A stretch of 24,127 nt of DNA from a virus. The stretch is taken from the IMG/VR virus record IMGVR_UViG_3300044302_001895, positions 1 through 24,127 of that record. One strand, given 5' to 3'. The translations under genes and the position numbers were made by a program. The notes beneath the pieces were generated by a model, which worked only from the letters and a program-made list of their open reading frames with translations, had not been told where the DNA came from and made no database searches. This document shows positions 3,892 through 21,601 of the stretch, piece after piece; positions within the stretch are counted from its first letter, which is position 1; each line of letters begins with the position of its first letter.

Positions 3892-4268
3892 TGAGTTTGG
3901 AACCAGAATACAAATCACATAGAGGGCTATTCCAGGAGGTGAGTAGCATCCTAGGTGTAGATGAAACTTCGGCGTATTGGACTGACGAGGATTTCATTGA
4001 TGCCTGCCAGTACGATGGTAGACAACCTGTCTTTAGGATGAAACAGTTTGATGCTTGGTATAAGCGGCTCGAACGCTGGATGAAGATAGCTTCATACTTC
4101 AAGCGGCAATCTCTTTACACATATGCAACTGAGAATGGCCACGGCGGTATTGCTAGCGCAGCGAAAGTGCTAGGTGTAACTAGGCAGCGAGCTCATGACA
4201 TGTACAAGGAAGCAGAGTCTGAACGACTATCACAGTTCACCCCTAAATTCTATTGCGAAGATGTTTGA
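3891..4268 (+). CDS. Hypothetical HTH-containing protein (125 aa)
   Basis: This 125-residue protein begins at the TAATG junction and has AAAGGAG upstream. The C-terminal part (about 85-108, GGIASAAKVLGVTRQRAHDM) reads as a helix-turn-helix of the sigma-region-4/Fis-like type: a helix starting with Ala-Ser-Ala-Ala, a turn at LGVT, and a recognition helix with Arg-Gln-Arg. The N-terminal 80 residues are aromatic-rich and unrecognised. It sits directly before WhiB and overlaps it by 8 bases, so the two may form a regulatory pair. DNA binding is inferred from the HTH only. Confidence 0.6.
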   Translation: MSLEPEYKSHRGLFQEVSSILGVDETSAYWTDEDFIDACQYDGRQPVFRMKQFDAWYKRLERWMKIASYFKRQSLYTYATENGHGGIASAAKVLGVTRQRAHDMYKEAESERLSQFTPKFYCEDV

Positions 4269-4536
4269 TACATCAAACGTTCCTTGCAAGGGGAAGACAG
4301 AGCTCTTCTTCAATGAAAGGACCAGGCGAGGGCAATACCAAGCCAAAACAATATGTAGGAAATGTGACAAGAAAGCAGAATGCTTGGATTACGCAGTCAA
4401 TAACCACATATTTTTTGGGGTGTGGGGAGGTCTAAATAGCAAGGAAATTGAGGCCCAGCGGCGTTTGAAAGGAATTGTCCTAGAGCCGCACTATGGTTAT
4501 ACACGAGTCAGAAGGGAAAGAAAAAATTATGGTTGA
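4261..4536 (+). CDS. whiB: WhiB-family Fe-S transcriptional regulator
   Basis: A 91-residue WhiB-like protein. The four cluster cysteines are C9, C32, C35 and C41 (C-x2-C-x5-C for the last three), followed by GVWGGL (53-58) and a basic C-terminal tail. TELFF after the first Cys is also typical. WhiB proteins bind a [4Fe-4S] cluster, contact the primary sigma factor and alter transcription; they are characteristic of Actinobacteria and their phages. The start at 4261 places the Cys motif at the usual position. It ends the second early operon, directly before the promoter-like leader at 4533. A phage copy probably represses or redirects host WhiB-dependent transcription, or blocks superinfection, as reported for mycobacteriophage TM4 WhiB. 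Confidence 0.92.
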   Translation: MFDTSNVPCKGKTELFFNERTRRGQYQAKTICRKCDKKAECLDYAVNNHIFFGVWGGLNSKEIEAQRRLKGIVLEPHYGYTRVRRERKNYG

Positions 4537-4538
4537 CG

Positions 4539-4566
4539 TTGCTTTGTCTATCGTAAACCCTATAAT
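4539..4566 (+). promoter_or_regulatory. Candidate promoter for replication operon
   Basis: A perfect TATAAT (4561-4566) has a weak TTGCTT 16 bases upstream (4539-4544). A better -35 match, TTGACG (4533-4538), lies 22 bases away, which is too far for a normal spacer. A start near 4572 would place the transcript's 5' end inside the long GC hairpin that follows. It sits in the only gap before the replication operon, which otherwise has no visible promoter. Confidence 0.45.
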
Positions 4567-4612
4567 GGGGGGTAAGGGGGGCCACCCCAAAGGTGGCCCT
4601 ACCTTACCCCCC
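4567..4612 (+). repeat. Long GC-rich inverted repeat (about 19-20 bp stem)
   Basis: GGGGGGTAAGG (4567-4577) pairs perfectly with CCTTACCCCCC (4602-4612). GGGCCACC (4579-4586) pairs perfectly with GGTGGCCC (4592-4599) around a 5-base loop. Only one G-T pair and one bulged A lie between the two helices. No T-run follows on either strand, so it is not an ordinary intrinsic terminator. It begins right after the TATAAT box. Possible roles are a 5' mRNA stabiliser, a protein-binding site or part of an origin. Confidence 0.8.
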
Positions 4613-4623
4613 AAGGTAACACC

Positions 4624-4679
4624 GTTGAGGTCAAGTGTTAACTCTCCCTTGCACTTGGCCTCAACATTAAAGGAGAGAG
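4624..4679 (+). promoter_or_regulatory. Hairpin with loop complementary to downstream RBS (possible pseudoknot)
   Basis: A 14-bp stem pairs 4624-4637 with 4652-4665 (GTTGAGGTCAAGTG against CACTTGGCCTCAAC, with one T-G pair) around a 14-base loop. CTCTCC in the loop (4642-4647) is complementary to GGAGAG (4672-4677), the ribosome binding site for the ATG at 4680. This would make an H-type pseudoknot that blocks translation of the nuclease gene. I do not recognise it as a known riboswitch class. Confidence 0.55.
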
Positions 4680-5453
4680 ATGCAAGAAATTAGGTTACGC
4701 CAAAGTTGGATAAACAATTTCTTGAGATGCCCTGAGCAAGCTAGACAAGAGCGGCTTGGGCTAGTCACGCAGAAACAAACAAGTGACTTGATCCGAGGTA
4801 ACGCTGTACATGCCGCAATAGAGCATGCTGGTTTAGTTAGAATGGGGGGATCCGAAGAAGTTGACTACGATGAGCTCATAGATGTTTCAGATACATTCTT
4901 AGCGGAGAACGGAAATTCTGTTGATGTCTGGCGACACAGTTACGAGCAAGTGGTCGATATATGTCGTGCCAATGTCACAACTTGGTACAACGAGCTGAAC
5001 CCCATCTTAGATCCAGTTGGGGTTGAACAGACTTTTGAAAAGTCGATGGGTGTTAGGCATGGGGTTCAGCTCATTCTAACTGGTACTGCCGATTGGAACG
5101 ATAAAAGCGGCGTGCTTTGGGACTGGAAGAATCCCTCTAGACATTATCCTGCTTGGGAGAAAAAACGTTGGGATATACAATCTCATGCGTATACTTGGGC
5201 TTTGGAGAAAGAACAATTTAATTTAGCCGTCTTTGCGAATGGAGATTTGCAGGTCATAGAGATCTACAGGTCAGAGCAGGATAAGGCGGCGTTTATAGAA
5301 CTTTGCTGGTCCATAGTGCCGACACTATTGACCATTGAGGAGGCAACAACGTGGCCTCAACGATGGGAAGGGTGGCATTGCTCACCTAAATGGTGTCCAG
5401 TATGGCAGGCAGGTAAATGCCGAGGAGAACACCTCGGAGAAGACCCCTGGTAA
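4680..5453 (+). CDS. Cas4/RecB-like PD-(D/E)XK exonuclease
   Basis: A 257-residue nuclease-fold protein. Motifs in order: FLRCPEQAR (14-22), GNAVH (40-44), GTADW with metal-binding Asp138, WDWK (147-150) giving the D-x-K core (Asp148, Lys150), and QSHAY (167-171). These are the RecB/Cas4 nuclease signatures. C17 together with C234, C239 and C247 matches the split four-Cys iron-sulphur arrangement of Cas4 and AddB. In phages such proteins probably process DNA ends for recombination and replication, as a lambda-Exo analogue. There is no adjacent CRISPR array, so a spacer-acquisition role is not supported. It is the first gene of the replication module, and its ribosome binding site may be masked by the leader hairpin. 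Confidence 0.85.
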   Translation: MQEIRLRQSWINNFLRCPEQARQERLGLVTQKQTSDLIRGNAVHAAIEHAGLVRMGGSEEVDYDELIDVSDTFLAENGNSVDVWRHSYEQVVDICRANVTTWYNELNPILDPVGVEQTFEKSMGVRHGVQLILTGTADWNDKSGVLWDWKNPSRHYPAWEKKRWDIQSHAYTWALEKEQFNLAVFANGDLQVIEIYRSEQDKAAFIELCWSIVPTLLTIEEATTWPQRWEGWHCSPKWCPVWQAGKCRGEHLGEDPW

Positions 5454-5472: not shown

Positions 5473-6237
5473 ATGACAGAGACATCTAAAATTACTGTTC
5501 ATTTCGCCCAAAAGGTGAGTGAACAAAGTTATGAGACAGCGGATTATTCCCTCATGATTGAGCGAGTAGTTCCTGTGTCAATGGGTGATGAAGGTATCGC
5601 TGCCGAAGCAGCTTCACTTTTTGAATTAGCAAAGAGCGAAGTGTTAAAGCAGGCAGGTCAAGAATTTGACATAAGTGATACTGGCGTGGTGATGCGGAAA
5701 CTCAAAAGTGCTGTTTCCAAACCTGCAAGTAATGCGCCAAGCGCCCCTGCGAAAGCACCCACCAATAGTAGCCAAAGTGGTCCAACAGCTCAATCCGTAG
5801 CTGCACCGCCACAGAAGCCAGCAGGTGGTAAAATGAGCGGCAGGGTTTACAAGCGTCTACCTACATGTGTTGGGAAGAACGCTGAGATAAACCAAGCAGC
5901 GTTTAATATCCTGGCTTTCCACCCCAACAAGTGGAATGACTCTACTAGCGGAACTGAAACAACCGTTTATGAAGTCAAGGAAAGAGCAGATGGTTCAACT
6001 GATGTGGCTAAGAGTGGGAACAACTTCCCGAACTTCTCCATATCACCTGAAGCCCTTGCTTTCGCTGGCTTTGAGATCCAGAAGAACCACGGCATATGGA
6101 TACGAGAAGGCGACAGTAATGTACCTCTCACTGTCTGGGATGTCGTTGGGGGACAGACCGAGGATGATGCTATTGAGTGGGATTGGGTAGCTCGTCGAGC
6201 AGAGCTCCAAGACTACGCTTACAAGCCTAGGTCATAA
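5473..6237 (+). CDS. Replication-module protein with Pro/Ala-rich linker, possible ssDNA-binding
   Basis: A 254-residue protein starting at the ATG at 5473, about 9 bases after GGGAGAAAG. It has three parts: an N-terminal alpha/beta region (1-80) starting with strands (TSKITVHFAQKVSEQSYE), a low-complexity linker rich in Pro, Ala, Ser and Gln (about 82-122), and a C-terminal domain (about 125-254) rich in aromatic residues. A nuclease lies upstream and a helicase downstream, overlapping by one base. That position, and strands plus a flexible linker, would suit a single-strand-binding or annealing protein, but I do not recognise a family and no OB-fold motif is certain. It could also be a helicase loader or a nuclease partner. 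Confidence 0.6.
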   Translation: MTETSKITVHFAQKVSEQSYETADYSLMIERVVPVSMGDEGIAAEAASLFELAKSEVLKQAGQEFDISDTGVVMRKLKSAVSKPASNAPSAPAKAPTNSSQSGPTAQSVAAPPQKPAGGKMSGRVYKRLPTCVGKNAEINQAAFNILAFHPNKWNDSTSGTETTVYEVKERADGSTDVAKSGNNFPNFSISPEALAFAGFEIQKNHGIWIREGDSNVPLTVWDVVGGQTEDDAIEWDWVARRAELQDYAYKPRS

Positions 6238-7211
6238 TGGAGGAGAGCGTAACGGCTCTCACCGAAGAGGAGATTGAGGCCAGATTGACTGGCCTTGATC
6301 TTCCAGAAGAGGGAGAGCAATACAAATTCTTTAGACCCACATCAGAAGCAGTGGACAAATGGGTAAACTACGCTCAAGCTTCCCACGATTGCTTCCACAT
6401 GGGATTGCAAGCGATAGACGAGAAGATGCGAGGAGTGTGGCCAAGCGATGTACTAGTCGTAACTGGCAGAGCGCACTCAGGTAAAAGCGCCGTCTTGTTG
6501 TCTAGCATCGCTCGCAACCTACAGGAAGACCCTGACTTCTACGGTGTGATCTACACCCCAGACGAGCCAGAGATCTTGGTTGTGTCAAAGCTATACGCTT
6601 TGCTTTACCGCAGAAACCTCGCACAAGTAGAAGAAGCTTTACGGACAGAAGACAGAGATGTGATCTCAGAGATCAAAGAAGCCAGAGATGGCTTCCTAGA
6701 TCGTGTCAAGATCTTTCCGACGGCGTTAAGCTTCGATGACATGAGCGAAGCCATGCGAGAATGCGAAGACTACTGGCAACACAAGCCACGTTTCGTCATG
6801 GTGGATTTCCTGGAACAGCTACCCAAGGCTTCAGGATACGAAGGCGTATCAAATGTGCTTAAGGGCATGAAGGAATGGGCCGAAGCAGAGAACCTACCAG
6901 TGGGCTTGATACACCAATCAGGTAAGCAATCCCATAGAGGTTCGAGCAGAGGGATGGACGACGGTAAATTCAACGCCGACGAATATGCTATACTTCAATT
7001 AAACGTATTCAGGAAGAGGGACAACCCGAAGCTATCAGACGAAGAACGAAGGATACACAGCGTGAGTGTTTCACTTGACTTATGTAAGAACAAGAGGCCA
7101 CCGTGTAAGATAACTTCGCCCCCCATAGATTACTTCATGGACCCAGACTGCGGATTCGTTAGAGAATACTACGAATCCGACATCCCAGAGGATGACCGAT
7201 GGCTAGAGTAG
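6237..7211 (+). CDS. DnaB-like replicative helicase (RecA-fold ATPase)
   Basis: A 324-residue ATPase. Walker A is GRAHSGKS (77-84), Walker B is RFVMVDFLEQL (185-195, Asp190), and the IHQSGKQSHRG stretch (225-235) matches the DnaB/RepA-type motif after Walker B. Acidic residues at 108-110 (PDE) could supply the catalytic base. The N-terminal 55 residues are a short acidic region in place of the full DnaB N-terminal domain, as in many phage helicases. Expected role: a hexameric 5'-3' helicase unwinding the fork with the primase encoded two genes downstream. Its ATG overlaps the previous stop by one base. Confidence 0.8.
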   Translation: MEESVTALTEEEIEARLTGLDLPEEGEQYKFFRPTSEAVDKWVNYAQASHDCFHMGLQAIDEKMRGVWPSDVLVVTGRAHSGKSAVLLSSIARNLQEDPDFYGVIYTPDEPEILVVSKLYALLYRRNLAQVEEALRTEDRDVISEIKEARDGFLDRVKIFPTALSFDDMSEAMRECEDYWQHKPRFVMVDFLEQLPKASGYEGVSNVLKGMKEWAEAENLPVGLIHQSGKQSHRGSSRGMDDGKFNADEYAILQLNVFRKRDNPKLSDEERRIHSVSVSLDLCKNKRPPCKITSPPIDYFMDPDCGFVREYYESDIPEDDRWLE

Positions 7212-7369
7212 AAACAATAGATCCGTTTGAAGAAGGACACGTTTGTGAAGATAACCCTTTTCAATACTACGAAAACACTAGCGAATTTGAAGAACAGGGA
7301 ATGCAACTAGCTGTGCATTACCAATGTGGAATATGTGGCACACAACTTCAGGTTGGTCATCATGGCTAG
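7199..7369 (+). CDS. Small CxxC protein between helicase and primase (56 aa)
   Basis: This 56-residue frame starts with ATG at 7199, overlaps the helicase by 13 bases, and ends with TAG at 7367-7369, overlapping the primase start by 8 bases. Its protein has one Cys at 16 and a CGIC pair (43-46) plus His residues near the end (GHH, 53-55), which could bind a metal. The N-terminal part is acidic. The tight overlaps on both sides support a real gene. Its first 12 bases are identical to the first 12 of the primase gene. Function is unknown. Confidence 0.6.
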   Translation: MARVETIDPFEEGHVCEDNPFQYYENTSEFEEQGMQLAVHYQCGICGTQLQVGHHG

Positions 7370-8276
7370 AGTAAAACAACTACTAGAAGACTTCGCTACC
7401 CTCCACGAAGGAGGCGCAGTCGCATCAGTCAAAGACAAAGTACACCCCCTGAGCAAAAATGTCACACCAGAAGACTACCTTGAATACGTTGCCGAGCATC
7501 TCAATGGGGACACACCAATCGGTGTCTACCCATTATGGCAACGCAACAACGTGTGGATGGTCAACTGGGCCGCAGTCGATCTAGACGAAGGCGACATCAG
7601 CGACGTACACGCAGATAACCTAGTTGCGCTACTAGCCAAGATGAATATAACAGCTTGGAAAGAACCTTCAAGGAGCAAAGGCTATCACGTTTGGGTCTAC
7701 CTCAAAGAAGCGTTATCAGCAACGGTAGCTAGAAACGGAATGATCGGAGCCTGCCGAACAGTAGACGTACCAATCAGAGAAGTCTACCCGAAACAAACAA
7801 GCCTAGAAAAAGGCAAGATAGGAAACTGCCTACGACTCCCATACCCAAAGATAAGGACCAAGGGAAAACAAGTCGTAGCAGGATACAACCTGAACGAGTT
7901 TGTAGAAGCAGCAATGGAATCCAGGACTCCCCCTTCTGTCTATCGAAAGCTACTGGCGTTACATCGGGCTACAGAACCAGCTCCTTTACGCATAAAGGAT
8001 AAGGGGACACGCATCGACGGAGAGTTCCAAGGAGTGGCTAAAGAGATATGGGAAGACCCAACAAGCAAGCGAGGGACACCTGTTACTGACCGTTCAGCGA
8101 CGCTATTGGCGTTTGCTGGTAGCCTTATATGGCAAGAATTTTCAATCCAAGCTACTATAGATTGGGTAAGAAGACTAGACGATAGGGTAGGTAAATACGT
8201 GGGACGTGCAGATCGAGAGACACGGATCAGAGAGCTTGTCGAACTAGCAGCATCTAGGGTGCAAGTTCGTGACTAA
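7362..8276 (+). CDS. AEP-type DNA primase
   Basis: A 304-residue protein resembling archaeo-eukaryotic primase (AEP) domains of phages and of TOTE-type systems. AAVDLDEGD (70-78) provides the paired metal-binding Asp residues, SRSKGYHVWVYL (103-114) is the conserved sxH motif with His109, and EVYPKQ (140-145) with GNCLRLPYPK (154-163) forms the third conserved block. The C-terminal region (about 240-304) is helical and may be the PriCT-like part that contacts the helicase. Role: primer synthesis for the phage fork. I chose the ATG at 7362; a longer frame from 7326 would overlap the small Cys protein much more. It ends overlapping the resolvase start by 8 bases. Confidence 0.75.
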   Translation: MARVKQLLEDFATLHEGGAVASVKDKVHPLSKNVTPEDYLEYVAEHLNGDTPIGVYPLWQRNNVWMVNWAAVDLDEGDISDVHADNLVALLAKMNITAWKEPSRSKGYHVWVYLKEALSATVARNGMIGACRTVDVPIREVYPKQTSLEKGKIGNCLRLPYPKIRTKGKQVVAGYNLNEFVEAAMESRTPPSVYRKLLALHRATEPAPLRIKDKGTRIDGEFQGVAKEIWEDPTSKRGTPVTDRSATLLAFAGSLIWQEFSIQATIDWVRRLDDRVGKYVGRADRETRIRELVELAASRVQVRD

Positions 8277-8616
8277 AACATACAAGTTCTCAATCCCTAT
8301 AAGACCCAAAAGCAAAGGAAGGCCTAGGGTCACCAGCAAGAATGGTAAACAATGGGCCTACACGCCAAAGGGAACTAGGGACTATGAACAAGCAGTACGT
8401 GACTATTACAAAGGTCCAAAATTCGATGGCCCAGTTTCAATGACAATAACTTTGTCGAAGAAACGAGCTATTGTCACAATCACAGAAATGGATTGTGAAT
8501 CTTCTCCTCTAAGGGGCGACATATCTAATTATGTTAAGGGCATAGAGGATGCATTAAACGGTCTCGCCTATGATGATGACCGTCAAATACACCGCTTAGT
8601 AGGAAGGAAAAAATGA
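8269..8616 (+). CDS. rusA: RusA-family Holliday junction resolvase
   Basis: A 115-residue protein of normal RusA length. It has the N-terminal KSKGRPRVT (14-22) and the family signature RGDISNYVKGIEDALNGLAY followed by DDDRQI (82-107), with the catalytic acidic residues probably Asp84, Asp94 and Asp102/103. RusA cuts four-way DNA junctions, resolving recombination or replication intermediates before packaging. It starts with GTG at 8269 inside the primase gene's end and finishes with an ATGA overlap to the next gene. Confidence 0.88.
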   Translation: MTKTYKFSIPIRPKSKGRPRVTSKNGKQWAYTPKGTRDYEQAVRDYYKGPKFDGPVSMTITLSKKRAIVTITEMDCESSPLRGDISNYVKGIEDALNGLAYDDDRQIHRLVGRKK

Positions 8617-9071
8617 CAGACAAACCATTCCACCAAGGAACATACGCAGAGCGTTTTGTTTCTATGGGAGACGAAGCAGAATCTCAATTTGAAGCCCACA
8701 ACATACAGTGGGCTCGTTTTGGTTTTAACAGGCCAGAAGGAATGACCAAATTTCACTACCTCCCCCACGTTATACGCTACACTCCAGATTACGTGCAGGC
8801 AGACCCTACACGACTAGTAGAAGTAATGGGTATGGGTAGAACACCTTTGAAAATAAAGATGGAAAAAATTGCAGCTATGCAATGGTGGGACGGACTAGAA
8901 GCTCCGCTATACCTATGGGTCTGGTCGTCTACCAGGCAAAATTATGCTGAAGTTAAATTTAGGGAGTTAATGAATATCATTAATAAGAATGATGTTCCGC
9001 TAGGTAACTTTCAAGAAGGTAAAAAATACTTCTCTATAAGTTCCAAGCTACTCCCTTGGAATGACGAGTGA
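8613..9071 (+). CDS. Probable PD-(D/E)XK-like protein (152 aa)
   Basis: This 152-residue protein starts at ATG after AGGAAGG. The stretch RYTPDYV (55-61) followed by RLVEVMGMG (67-75) resembles the PD...(D/E)-x-x core of small PD-(D/E)XK nucleases, with Asp59 and Glu70. The usual Lys two residues after the Glu is Met here, although Lys80 or Lys82 could take its place. An aromatic strand LYLWVWSS (99-106) follows. It sits beside RusA in the recombination block, which favours a nuclease or repair role, but a decayed catalytic core with a structural role is also possible. Confidence 0.6.
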   Translation: MTDKPFHQGTYAERFVSMGDEAESQFEAHNIQWARFGFNRPEGMTKFHYLPHVIRYTPDYVQADPTRLVEVMGMGRTPLKIKMEKIAAMQWWDGLEAPLYLWVWSSTRQNYAEVKFRELMNIINKNDVPLGNFQEGKKYFSISSKLLPWNDE

Positions 9072-9480
9072 AGCAAGCGAGGGAGAAAAATTATTTAATA
9101 GGCTAAAGCTCCTCAAGTTCCCCTCCCTAGCTCCTGTGCGTACACGCAAAGGAGCTAATTCTATATCGTCTTACTACTCTACAGAAATAGAAGCGATCCT
9201 AAACGCTAAACCTGGCCAAGAGCCAGAAGTCTCGCAAGAGCTAATGGAACGTCAACACGACGAGCTTTACAAAGCTGTCGAAGATATGTTCTCAAGGCTC
9301 ACAGAAGAAGAACAATGGATATACCACATGCTGGTAGACATAGGATTGTCCATGAGGTTTGTAGCTAGAGTACTAGGCATACCCAAGACAACGTTTGCTC
9401 GCAGAAGAGACGCACTCGCAAGCAAGATGCGGCGAATACTGTTAGAACATGAAGTAGTCCGAGATAAACTAGGTTTCTAG
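9061..9480 (+). CDS. Sigma-region-4-like HTH protein
   Basis: A 139-residue protein beginning at the ATG at 9061, overlapping the previous gene by 11 bases. The region LTEEEQWIYHML (80-91) followed by LSMRFVARVLGIPKTTFARR (96-115) matches the pattern of sigma-70 region 4: a helix, then a helix-turn-helix, then a recognition helix starting PKTT. The first 60 residues are basic and probably flexible. No region 2 is visible, so it is not a full sigma factor. It is the last early gene, so it could help switch to late transcription or act as a sigma appropriator. Its 3' end overlaps the convergent ferredoxin gene by 12 bases. Confidence 0.65.
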   Translation: MTSEASEGEKLFNRLKLLKFPSLAPVRTRKGANSISSYYSTEIEAILNAKPGQEPEVSQELMERQHDELYKAVEDMFSRLTEEEQWIYHMLVDIGLSMRFVARVLGIPKTTFARRRDALASKMRRILLEHEVVRDKLGF

Positions 9481-19533: not shown

Positions 19534-19823
19534 TACGCTCCTTCAGGTGGATCAGGGAAATCTACAACCATACCCAAAATAGCAGATGCAGGTAGGTCCC
19601 TCAACGCCGTTCTATACGCAGCCCATTCAGCTTTCTTAGAATCTGTTAAAGGACTATCCGCTGCTTGAGTCCAGTCAGAAGTTCCAAGCCGTCGATCTCT
19701 TTCTCGTCTGAGCATTACCGCCCATTGAGCATCACTCACTGGACCGTCAGTACCATCATCCCACTGTTCGGTCCCAGAATTGTAAACTCCATGTGCTGGT
19801 TCTAAACCTATTTGGATCATCAT
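19533..19823 (-). CDS. Tail-assembly-chaperone-like protein (Phage_tail_APC type)
   Basis: This 96-residue protein begins at ATG 19823 (overlapping the collagen-fibre stop as ATGA; a second ATG follows at 19820). It contains [14 protein letters not shown] (39-52) and [12 protein letters not shown] (67-78), the typical 'R-R-x-R-D-x-x-L-x-x-S-D-W ... W-x-x-Y-R-x-x-L-R-D-x-P' pattern of small phage tail-assembly chaperones encoded beside fibre genes. The longer upstream frame runs through the fibre gene in another frame and is spurious. It probably helps fold or trimerise the adjacent fibre protein. Confidence 0.8.
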
Positions 19824-21601
19824 GCTGCCCGATACCATCCGTTCATATAAATGATTGCACTTGTACCCCATCCTGCTGGAACACTTGTACCACCGTTGGC
19901 ATTCGTCAAAGAAGCGTAAGTGCCACTTGCAACCTCTGTGCAAGGGTACGCTGTAGACCCTGAAGTCAGAACTGGCCCTTCATAAAGCGTTCCTCCTGCT
20001 GGGGCTAGCGCACAGGTTAACCATTGGTAGCCAGTATCACCATTCGTTGCCACTGGCAATGAAATCGTCATAGACCCTGATGAATAGCTAGTCGAACTAC
20101 CTGCCGTGGCTTTTAATTTGACGAATACCCATTCGTCAAGTTGGACATATTGTGCAGTCACCGTAGCATTTCCGATTGACACGTTGCCCCATGTTGGAGT
20201 CCACGTTTTCCAAGCGCCGTCGCCAACAAATTCTACCTTTCCACTGACCACCATTCTGTCGTCGCTTTCATCCCACCAAAAGTAACTAGTGTCGGCTGTC
20301 GCTCCGTAGAAAATTACATCATGCCCAGTGTCATTAACACCAACAGTCAACGCTGCCTTAGCGGTTAACGTTGAGCCATCATAAGTAAGATTAGCGTCAG
20401 CCCCAAAGCTACCACCGTCGTTCCATTGCACCTGATGATCTGAACCAGCAGGAGTACCAGAAGGACCAGTCGGCCCAGTAGGTCCAGTTGGTCCTGTAGG
20501 ACCAGTTGGACCAGAAGGACCAGTACCACCAGACGGACCAGGAGGGCCAGCAGGACCAGTAGGACCATTAGGACCATCAGGTCCAGTTGGGCCTGTTGGC
20601 CCAGTAGGACCAGTCCCACCACTAGGTCCGCTCGGCCCTGTAGGACCAGTCGGACCGCTTGGTCCAGTCGGCCCTACCAACGAAGTACCAGAACCCCAGC
20701 CAGAACCTGACTTAGGGCCAAAGATTTCGTTATCCCCAGTATCTATATAAAAGTCACCGTTAGAACCTGTGGGACCAGAAGGGTCACCACTACCATTAAG
20801 AATCTGTGCGCCTGTAGGCCCAGTCGGGCCAGTCGGACCTGTAGGTCCAGTGCCACCAGTAGGCCCACTAGGACCAGTAGGTCCAGTAGGGCCGTCAGGC
20901 CCAGGAGGACCAGCGCTACCTGTAGGGCCAGTAGGCCCAGTGGGGCCAGTAGGTCCAGTACCGCCAGGCCCAGTTGGTCCTGTGGGACCAGTCGGACCTG
21001 TGGGGCCGTTCGGCCCAGTCGGGCCTGTCGGCCCTGTGGGACCAGTGGGACCAACTAGAGAAGTTCCTGAACCCCAAGAACCACTCGACTTGGGACCAAA
21101 GATCTCATTGTCGCTTGTTTGAATATAAAAATCGCCATCAGCTCCAGTAGGCCCAGAAGGATCACCAGAACCATTCAATACCGTCTTACCATCAGAACCT
21201 GCTGGACCTGTCGGACCAGTACTACCTGTCGGACCTGTCGGGCCAGATGGACCTGTAGGTCCAGTCGGACCAGGTGGCCCTGCGCTTCCTGTTGGCCCAC
21301 TTGGACCTGTTGGTCCTGTGGGGCCGTTTGGTCCTGTTGGGCCTGTAGGTCCAGTTGGCCCTGTTGGGCCTGTACCACCAGATGAACCTTGCGAAGCTAA
21401 CGTCTGCCAATAAGCAGTATCGCCAGGAGTGTTGCCTGTCGTCGCTTGTCTAGCGATATATGAAGAGTTGTTATACGTTACGACATCTCCAGCAGCGTAA
21501 GTAGTGCCAGAAGCATACGTACCCTCATAATCAGGGCCGTTAGTCATGGTTATTTCGACTTGTGGTCCTAGAAGTTTGGTGTATTGAATATCTTTAGGCA
21601 T
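19820..21601 (-). CDS. Collagen-like tail fibre protein with carbohydrate-binding-like N-terminus
   Basis: A 593-residue fibre. Order: N-terminal region with a chitin-binding type-3-like segment (about 26-68, [20 protein letters not shown] and AYWQTLA), then three Gly-Pro-Thr collagen-like stretches (about 76-138, 184-265, 309-382) separated by two near-identical modules (141-183 and 267-309, with [26 protein letters not shown]), then a C-terminal part with [20 protein letters not shown] (390-409), one 'FYGAT...[13 protein letters not shown]' module (about 417-455) and a beta-rich receptor-like tip. Collagen-like triplets form a trimeric stalk, so this is likely a host-attachment fibre. It is joined to the chaperone gene downstream. 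Confidence 0.88.
20456..21376 (-). repeat. Collagen-like Gly-X-Y coding repeats, three blocks
   Basis: Blocks of 9-base GGN-CCN-ACN-type repeats occur at about 21188-21376, 20807-21052 and 20456-20677 (minus strand). They are separated by two copies of a module of about 130 bp (21053-21181 and 20675-20803) that encode nearly the same peptide. Low-complexity DNA of this kind is prone to expansion and contraction, and to assembly error, so the exact repeat number should be treated with care. Confidence 0.9.

What the first reader, a model, noticed from the sequence alone, without database searches (positions are those of the whole stretch)
4533..4682. Promoter, giant GC hairpin and RBS-pairing pseudoknot before the replication operon
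Between WhiB and the Cas4/RecB-like gene lie, in order, a TATAAT box (4561-4566), a nearly perfect 19-20 bp hairpin with six G-C pairs at its base (4567-4612), and a second 14-bp hairpin (4624-4637 with 4652-4665) whose loop CTCTCC (4642-4647) is exactly complementary to the ribosome binding site GGAGAG (4672-4677) of the next gene. Neither hairpin is followed by a T-run, so they are not simple terminators. The layout suggests an RNA switch or protein-binding leader controlling entry into replication. It matches no riboswitch class I know.
Basis: partly seen in the sequence, partly recalled or inferred. Interest (0 to 1): 0.75.

Follow-up and report, generated by a model that had tools for sequence, protein, structure and literature searches.

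The report
Phage mRNA knot masks replication ribosome site
In a family of marine actinobacterial phages, the messenger RNA for the DNA-replication genes begins with two strong hairpins, and the loop of the second one is built to pair with the ribosome-binding site just after it, so the phage very probably uses a folded RNA knot to limit when its replication proteins are made.

Summary
Relatives of the downstream PD-(D/E)XK exonuclease in IMG/VR and two actinobacterial MAG contigs keep the layout. 51 of 53 distinct leaders have hairpin 2 (HP2), and 49 also pair a CUCC loop with a GGAG Shine-Dalgarno (SD). The HP2 stem covaries strongly. Between the window and its nearest diverged relative, four stem pairs change on both sides, while the 14-nt loop and the SD are identical. 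The loop:SD helix is 5-12 bp. Its core never varies. The flanking pairs fit their own partner better than swapped ones (0 of 20,000 permutations as good), although only one position shows same-branch compensation after tree correction. The element was found only in front of this gene (about 2.2 Mb, both strands). It has no Rfam match above threshold; a sub-threshold 6C hit is probably convergence. Hairpin 1 (HP1) abuts a -10-like hexamer in nearly all relatives and also covaries, but its role is unresolved. Best reading: a new cis-acting leader family, an H-type pseudoknot that masks the SD of the replication operon, plausibly a feedback operator like T4 gene 32 or rpsO. No ligand, protein or transcript start has been shown. 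Some sub-lineages have lost it.

The parts
4561..4566 (+). -10-like hexamer TATAAT directly abutting HP1
   Evidence: Sequence; a TANNNT-like hexamer abuts HP1 in nearly all relatives. A promoter is inferred, not mapped.
4566..4613 (+). HP1: GC hairpin of about 20 bp with one bulge, at or just after the presumed transcript start
   Evidence: conserved in position with different stem sequences in relatives. Role unresolved.
4624..4637 (+). HP2 stem (S1), 5' arm GTTGAGGTCAAGTG
   Evidence: covariation
4638..4651 (+). HP2 loop TTAACTCTCCCTTG, an anti-Shine-Dalgarno loop
   Evidence: Loop identical in L006 although the stem changed; the CTCC core is invariant in 49 leaders
4642..4647 (+). S2 5' strand CTCTCC, pairs with 4672-4677
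   Evidence: Exact complement; swap test; energies
4652..4665 (+). HP2 stem (S1), 3' arm CACTTGGCCTCAAC
4666..4671 (+). L3 linker ATTAAA (6 nt) between S1 and the paired SD
   Evidence: linker lengths in relatives
4672..4677 (+). S2 3' strand GGAGAG, the Shine-Dalgarno of the next gene
4680..5453 (+). First gene of the replication operon: PD-(D/E)XK exonuclease (Cas4/RecB-like)
   Evidence: Pfam PF12705 E 4.6e-11; PHROG exonuclease; always the gene after the leader
5473..6237 (+). Second gene, conserved protein of unknown function
   Evidence: No Pfam hit, only a marginal unknown-function PHROG; AlphaFold pLDDT 71, no PDB match
6237..9480 (+). Rest of the operon: DnaB-type helicase, AEP-type primase, RusA resolvase, unknown protein, sigma-like protein
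   Evidence: synteny

Best explanation
The 4624-4677 segment is a cis-acting RNA element at the head of the phage replication operon. HP2 folds first during transcription. Its anti-SD loop then pairs with the SD that emerges a few nucleotides later and forms an H-type pseudoknot that hides the ribosome-binding site of the exonuclease gene. Translation of the operon head therefore depends on the balance between this knot and the 30S subunit. Most likely an excess of a replication protein stabilises the knot as feedback, as T4 gp32 or ribosomal protein S15 do on their own leaders; failing that, the knot is a constitutive brake. HP1 is a separate element at the transcript start, most likely a 5'-end hairpin that protects or insulates the mRNA. 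Shown here: the structure, its conservation and covariation, loop/SD co-adaptation, position and specificity. Inferred: SD occlusion in vivo. Speculative: the feedback protein and the role of HP1.
For: Fold z -7.7. 51 of 53 distinct leaders hold HP2 with a TCC-containing loop, and 49 have a CTCC loop core with a GGAG partner. Window versus L006: four double-sided stem changes with an identical loop and SD. S1: 63 same-branch double changes, 59 pair-to-pair, against 9.6 expected. Loop:RBS energy: cognate mean -12.55 against permuted -10.6 (sd 0.36), 0 of 20,000. S2 flanking pairs: 128 paired cells against 109.7 (sd 3.6) in shuffles. Within one ungapped clade the structure beats every slid version: 96% paired against 41-55%. 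Loop:RBS is stronger than 16S anti-SD:RBS in 26 of 27, and these RBSs are GGAGA in 26 of 27 against 49 of 255 other genes. A crude pseudoknot energy model favours the knot in all 21 tested. The motif occurs once per genome, only before this gene. Own loops do not match other genes' RBSs better than foreign loops overall, so a cis role fits best.
Against: The linker L3 is only 2-6 nt in many members while S1 is 14-15 bp, so the full H-type knot is strained and the bottom 2-4 pairs of S1 may have to open. After tree correction only position x2 shows excess same-branch changes in S2 (4 against 1.2 expected, 3 pair-to-pair); the S2 core never varies and so says nothing by covariation. In L044-L063 types the pairing stops at TCTCCC. 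Sub-lineages L067/L115/L117, L074/L075 and L121-L129 lack the pairing or HP2 altogether, so it is not essential for the operon. No RNA, protein or expression data exist, and no regulator was identified.
Confidence: 0.68

Rival explanations
1. Protein operator without a pseudoknot: HP2 is a recognition hairpin whose CUCC(C) loop is read by a protein (as the T4 gp43 operator hairpin is), and the match to the SD is incidental or secondary.
For: The loop core is invariant while the stem is free, as expected for a protein-read loop. T4/RB69 gp43 uses a hairpin upstream of the RBS without a pseudoknot (PMC3014915). The short L3 strains the knot.
Against: The loop matches its own SD outside the core better than swapped SDs do. 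Matches extend to 11-12 bp in L009, with 3 compensatory changes at x2. L043/L050/L081 change z1 from C-G to T-A on both sides.
Confidence: 0.17
2. Trans-acting RNA: the two-hairpin leader is released as a small RNA whose C-rich loop blocks G-rich SDs of other phage or host mRNAs, like actinobacterial 6C RNA or Gram-positive UCCC-loop sRNAs.
For: A sub-threshold 6C match at 4592-4667 (31.8 bits, gathering 47) and an anti-SD loop.
Against: The 6C match needs HP1 opened and was not seen in 14 relatives. Own loops do not match other genes' RBSs better than foreign loops overall. The leader always directly precedes the exonuclease gene. No terminator separates it from the gene.
Confidence: 0.07
3. 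DNA element: the inverted repeats serve as a replication origin (ssDNA initiation hairpins) or as a repressor operator over the promoter; RNA folding is irrelevant.
For: It precedes the replication genes; HP1 is a dyad over the presumed start site; a distant clade has palindromic TACTTAGTA repeats in the same place.
Against: Stem sequence changes freely with pairing kept, unlike a protein-DNA site. HP2 loop complementarity is to the SD, at fixed distance from the start codon. Long perfect arms with small loops are typical of RNA.
Confidence: 0.05
4. HP1 is a readthrough insulator or terminator that is complete only in transcripts from upstream, because the local transcript starts inside its 5' arm (this concerns HP1 only and can be true together with the best explanation).
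For: The -10-like hexamer abuts HP1. L013/L014 have a T-run terminator hairpin in that place instead.
Against: No T-run after HP1. L047 has a T-rich, terminator-like stretch and L064 a terminator-like hairpin further upstream, yet both keep HP1. In L074 (and L009/L010 types) the TTGACA-17-TAnnnT spacing would put the start at HP1's first G.
Confidence: 0.3
5. Metabolite riboswitch of the preQ1-II/SAM-II kind (H-type knot that buries the SD).
For: Same topology: a hairpin loop pairs with the SD.
Against: No Rfam match at threshold; no conserved unpaired nucleotides for a pocket; the downstream genes are replication genes.
Confidence: 0.02

Closest known systems
T4/T2/RB69 gene 32 leader pseudoknot (gp32 autogenous operator; PMC535899, PMC3014915)
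   Same: A phage replication-gene leader with an RNA pseudoknot upstream of the gene; thought to control translation of a replication protein.
   Different: In T4 the pseudoknot lies about 67 nt upstream of the start codon and the SD stays in an adjacent, less structured UUAAA-rich stretch; here the SD itself is the pseudoknot's second strand, and no regulator is known.
rpsO (S15) leader pseudoknot of E. coli and mycobacteria (PMC8470358)
   Same: A leader that folds as hairpins or as a pseudoknot next to a GGAG SD, controlling translation by feedback, including in an actinobacterium.
   Different: That one is read by S15 through a U-G/C-G motif in a ribosomal-protein gene; here the gene is a phage exonuclease and no such motif was looked for.
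preQ1-II / SAM-II type H-type riboswitches
   Same: A hairpin loop pairs with the downstream SD to hide it (from general knowledge of these classes).
   Different: No ligand-pocket nucleotides are conserved here and there is no Rfam match.
6C RNA of Actinobacteria (RF01066)
   Same: C-rich hairpin loops that can bind G-rich SDs; actinobacterial setting.
   Different: Below gathering score (31.8 against 47), several non-standard pairs, not seen in relatives, and 6C acts in trans.
T4/RB69 gene 43 operator
   Same: A hairpin just upstream of the RBS of a replication gene.
   Different: It has a conserved UAAC-type loop read by DNA polymerase and no evidence of a pseudoknot (PMC3014915).

Membership tests
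6C RNA (RF01066) | Covariance-model score at or above gathering (47 bits) | tested here: not met
   31.8 bits; no 6C match in 14 relatives
6C RNA (RF01066) | Two hairpins with runs of six C in both loops | tested here: not met
   Only the alternative first hairpin has CCCCCC; the HP2 loop is CTCTCCC
SD-sequestering H-type pseudoknot leader (structural kind) | Hairpin loop complementary to the downstream SD, conserved in relatives | tested here: met
SD-sequestering H-type pseudoknot leader (structural kind) | Compensatory changes in both helices | tested here: inconclusive
   S1 clearly; S2 only at flanking positions, weak after tree correction
SD-sequestering H-type pseudoknot leader (structural kind) | Translation repressed when the knot forms | not testable with these tools
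   Needs a reporter or toeprint assay
Autogenous replication-protein operator (T4 gene 32 type) | The encoded protein binds the leader and represses translation | not testable with these tools
   No binding data; the second gene product gave no significant solved-structure match
Metabolite riboswitch (preQ1-II, SAM-II and others) | Rfam model match at gathering threshold | tested here: not met
   0 matches in the window
Intrinsic terminator | GC hairpin followed by a T-run | tested here: not met
   0 found at 4200-4900; no T-run after HP1 or HP2 in relatives

The most novel reading that the evidence does not exclude
A previously undescribed family of phage leader RNAs in which a hairpin carries a mimic of the 16S anti-SD that locks the SD of the whole replication operon in a strained, tunable H-type pseudoknot, read by a phage replication protein as a feedback operator. 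It would be a second, unrelated phage pseudoknot operator after T4 gene 32, spread through marine actinobacterial phages.
Probability: 0.35. Interest if true: 0.75.

Novelty: new variant of a known kind. Interest (0 to 1): 0.6.

Why it matters
A 2010 review called the T4 gene 32 pseudoknot possibly the only viral example used in autoregulation of translation (PMC3014915). A conserved, covarying knot at the head of a replication operon in uncultured marine actinobacterial phages would be a second case, with the SD inside the knot. It gives a sequence-defined element that can be tested in a reporter without culturing phage or host. The loop being a better partner for the SD than the 16S tail is, in 26 of 27 members, makes loop-versus-ribosome competition directly measurable.

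Tried and rejected
(1) Rfam at gathering and relaxed thresholds: no accepted match; 6C, ftsZ-DE and assorted miRNA hits are below threshold and inconsistent between relatives. (2) MAFFT across all leaders misaligns the free-sequence stems, so hairpins were anchored in a script and one ungapped clade was checked with the pair counter. (3) An anti-HP2 switch by pairing HP1's C-run with HP2's G-rich arm: examined by eye on the sequences, fits L043/L050/L006 but not L009, L010, L019 or L060; rejected as not general. (4) Trans action on other RBSs: no overall excess. (5) The second operon protein as a recognisable SSB that could be the regulator: no Pfam hit, no PDB fold match, and only one significant viral match, an unnamed protein. 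(6) A more distant exonuclease clade (27% identity, L138-L163) does not have this leader but palindromic TACTNAGTA repeats. (7) The pseudoknot energy estimate uses a flat 9.6 kcal/mol penalty and a rough loop-length rule, so it shows plausibility only.

Full report
Check of the observation. The 124-nt segment folds at -69.6 kcal/mol against -39.8 (sd 3.9) for dinucleotide shuffles, z -7.7. HP2 and HP1 rank fourth and eighth by raw score among hairpins of the 24-kb window; higher-ranked ones include stems in the collagen-like repeat gene. HP2 was the only intergenic hairpin of the window above the cut-off of a second scan, which allowed no bulges and so missed HP1. No T-run terminator is present.

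Gene context. The next gene is a PD-(D/E)XK exonuclease (PF12705). It heads a syntenic operon: unknown protein, DnaB-type helicase, AEP-type primase, RusA resolvase, unknown protein, sigma-like protein. The gene before the leader in the window is WhiB; WhiB-like matches are found only in the closer relatives. The only matches among 84,980 prokaryotic species genomes are two MAG contigs labelled Actinomycetota (L088) and marine Acidimicrobiaceae (L089), so the hosts are probably marine actinobacteria. An earlier paper assigned a WhiB-bearing marine phage fragment to Ca. Actinomarina (PMC3861242).

Comparative evidence. Two searches gave about 85 viral contigs with the exonuclease. Of 53 distinct 110-nt upstream sequences, 51 contain HP2 with a TCC-containing loop; L074 and L075 do not. 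In 49 the loop holds CTCC and the SD holds GGAG. Stem sequences are almost wholly different between groups. Window versus L006: pairs 5, 9, 10 and 11 change on both sides (A-T to G-C, C-G to T-A, A-T to G-C, A-T to G-C) while the 14-nt loop and TTAAAGGAGAGAG are identical. On an exonuclease tree of 49 tips, S1 shows 63 same-branch double changes, 59 of them pair-to-pair, against 9.6 expected; some are over-counted because stems of different length were anchored at the base. In one ungapped clade the full structure, with S2, has 96% of cells paired against 41-55% when slid.

The loop-SD helix. The core CTCC/GGAG never varies, so covariation cannot test it; what is notable is that a loop core stays invariant in a hairpin whose stem is free. 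Outside the core, pairing is better for a leader's own SD than for swapped SDs: mean -12.55 against -10.6 kcal/mol, 0 of 20,000 permutations as good, 20 representatives under 85% alike. Positions x3, x2, z1 and z3 are paired more often than in shuffles. L009 reaches 11-12 bp (GTTATTCTCCC with GGGAGAATAAC); L043, L050 and L081 change the C-G next to the core to T-A. These tests do not correct for shared ancestry. With a tree, only x2 shows an excess of same-branch changes (4 against 1.2; 3 pair-to-pair), so the support for S2 beyond the invariant core is moderate. The loop binds the RBS more strongly than the 16S tail does in 26 of 27 members (the 16S tail sequence is from general knowledge).

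Geometry. L3 is 2-6 nt in many members and S1 is 14-15 bp. By general knowledge of H-type knots such a linker is short, so the bottom of S1 probably opens by a few pairs, or the L2 nucleotides give slack. A crude model favours the knot in all 21 leaders tried, by 1.5 to 13 kcal/mol. The strain could make the knot easy to tip, but that is inference.

Specificity. A scan for a stable hairpin with at least 6 nt of loop complementarity to an SD found one genuine site per genome in ten long contigs (the window included), always before the exonuclease (in L091 the scan picked an overlapping, shifted hairpin of the same leader). Across all loci (2.2 Mb, both strands) nearly all hits were the same leader; the exceptions were shifted or antisense calls in the same leader, the L013 terminator and a collagen-like repeat. 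The loci were fetched through the exonuclease, so an occurrence before other genes in unrelated phages is not excluded.

HP1. A TANNNT-like hexamer ends within a few bases of HP1 in nearly all relatives, and HP1's stem also varies with pairing kept. In L044, L057, L062, L019 and L067 a TTGAC(N) element lies 16-18 nt upstream, so transcription should start 6-7 nt inside HP1. In L074 the spacing puts the start at HP1's first G. HP1 can be lost alone (L013/L014, which have a T-run terminator hairpin in that place) and kept alone (L074, L121-L129). A comparable GC hairpin follows a TATA-like element at another, divergent locus in two relatives. I read it as a 5'-end hairpin or insulator; evidence is thin.

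What it is. The sequence evidence makes a structured, cis-acting mRNA leader close to certain and an SD-masking pseudoknot likely. Regulation by a protein is a reasonable guess from T4 gp32 (PMC535899; PMC3014915) and rpsO (PMC8470358), not a result. The 6C resemblance fails its membership test. Loss in several sub-lineages fits a fine-tuning device rather than an essential part.

Noticed in passing
L104:3224-3266 (- strand), L105:257-297 (- strand): In two relatives another very GC-rich hairpin (18-19 bp) follows a TATA-like element at a divergent, non-coding locus away from the exonuclease; promoter-proximal GC hairpins may be a general habit of these phages.
   Followed up: partly
L138-L163, upstream of the exonuclease homologue: A distant marine clade (27% identity) has repeated TACT(T/A)AGTA palindromes around a hairpin instead of the pseudoknot leader, which looks like a DNA operator.
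   Followed up: partly
L015, L076, L077 between HP2 and the SD; L095:9074, L095:17404, L095:19869, L096:1226: An extra hairpin (CCGTCGCG-TAAA-CGCGACGG in L015) sits between HP2 and the SD. Hairpins with the same CGCGACGGG stem recur at several intergenic places in that phage (L095:19869 and L096:69 are one site in overlapping loci), like a dispersed hairpin repeat.
   Followed up: no
L044, L055, L057, L062 upstream of the start codon: Two copies of GGGAG(A) precede the ATG close together; the loop can pair with either, so one may be a decoy or standby SD.
   Followed up: no
L067, L115, L117 upstream of the start codon: These have HP2 but lost the loop-SD match and instead have CAGTGT...ACACTG-like arms flanking the SD, a possible replacement hairpin.
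   Followed up: no
window 5473-6237: The second operon protein is conserved in all relatives of the main clade but has no Pfam hit, only a marginal unknown-function PHROG, and no PDB fold match; its only significant viral structure match is an unnamed protein, A0A1B1IRI4.
   Followed up: partly
window 19820-21601 (- strand): A collagen-like GPT-repeat protein among the structural genes gives several of the other strong inverted repeats of the window.
   Followed up: no
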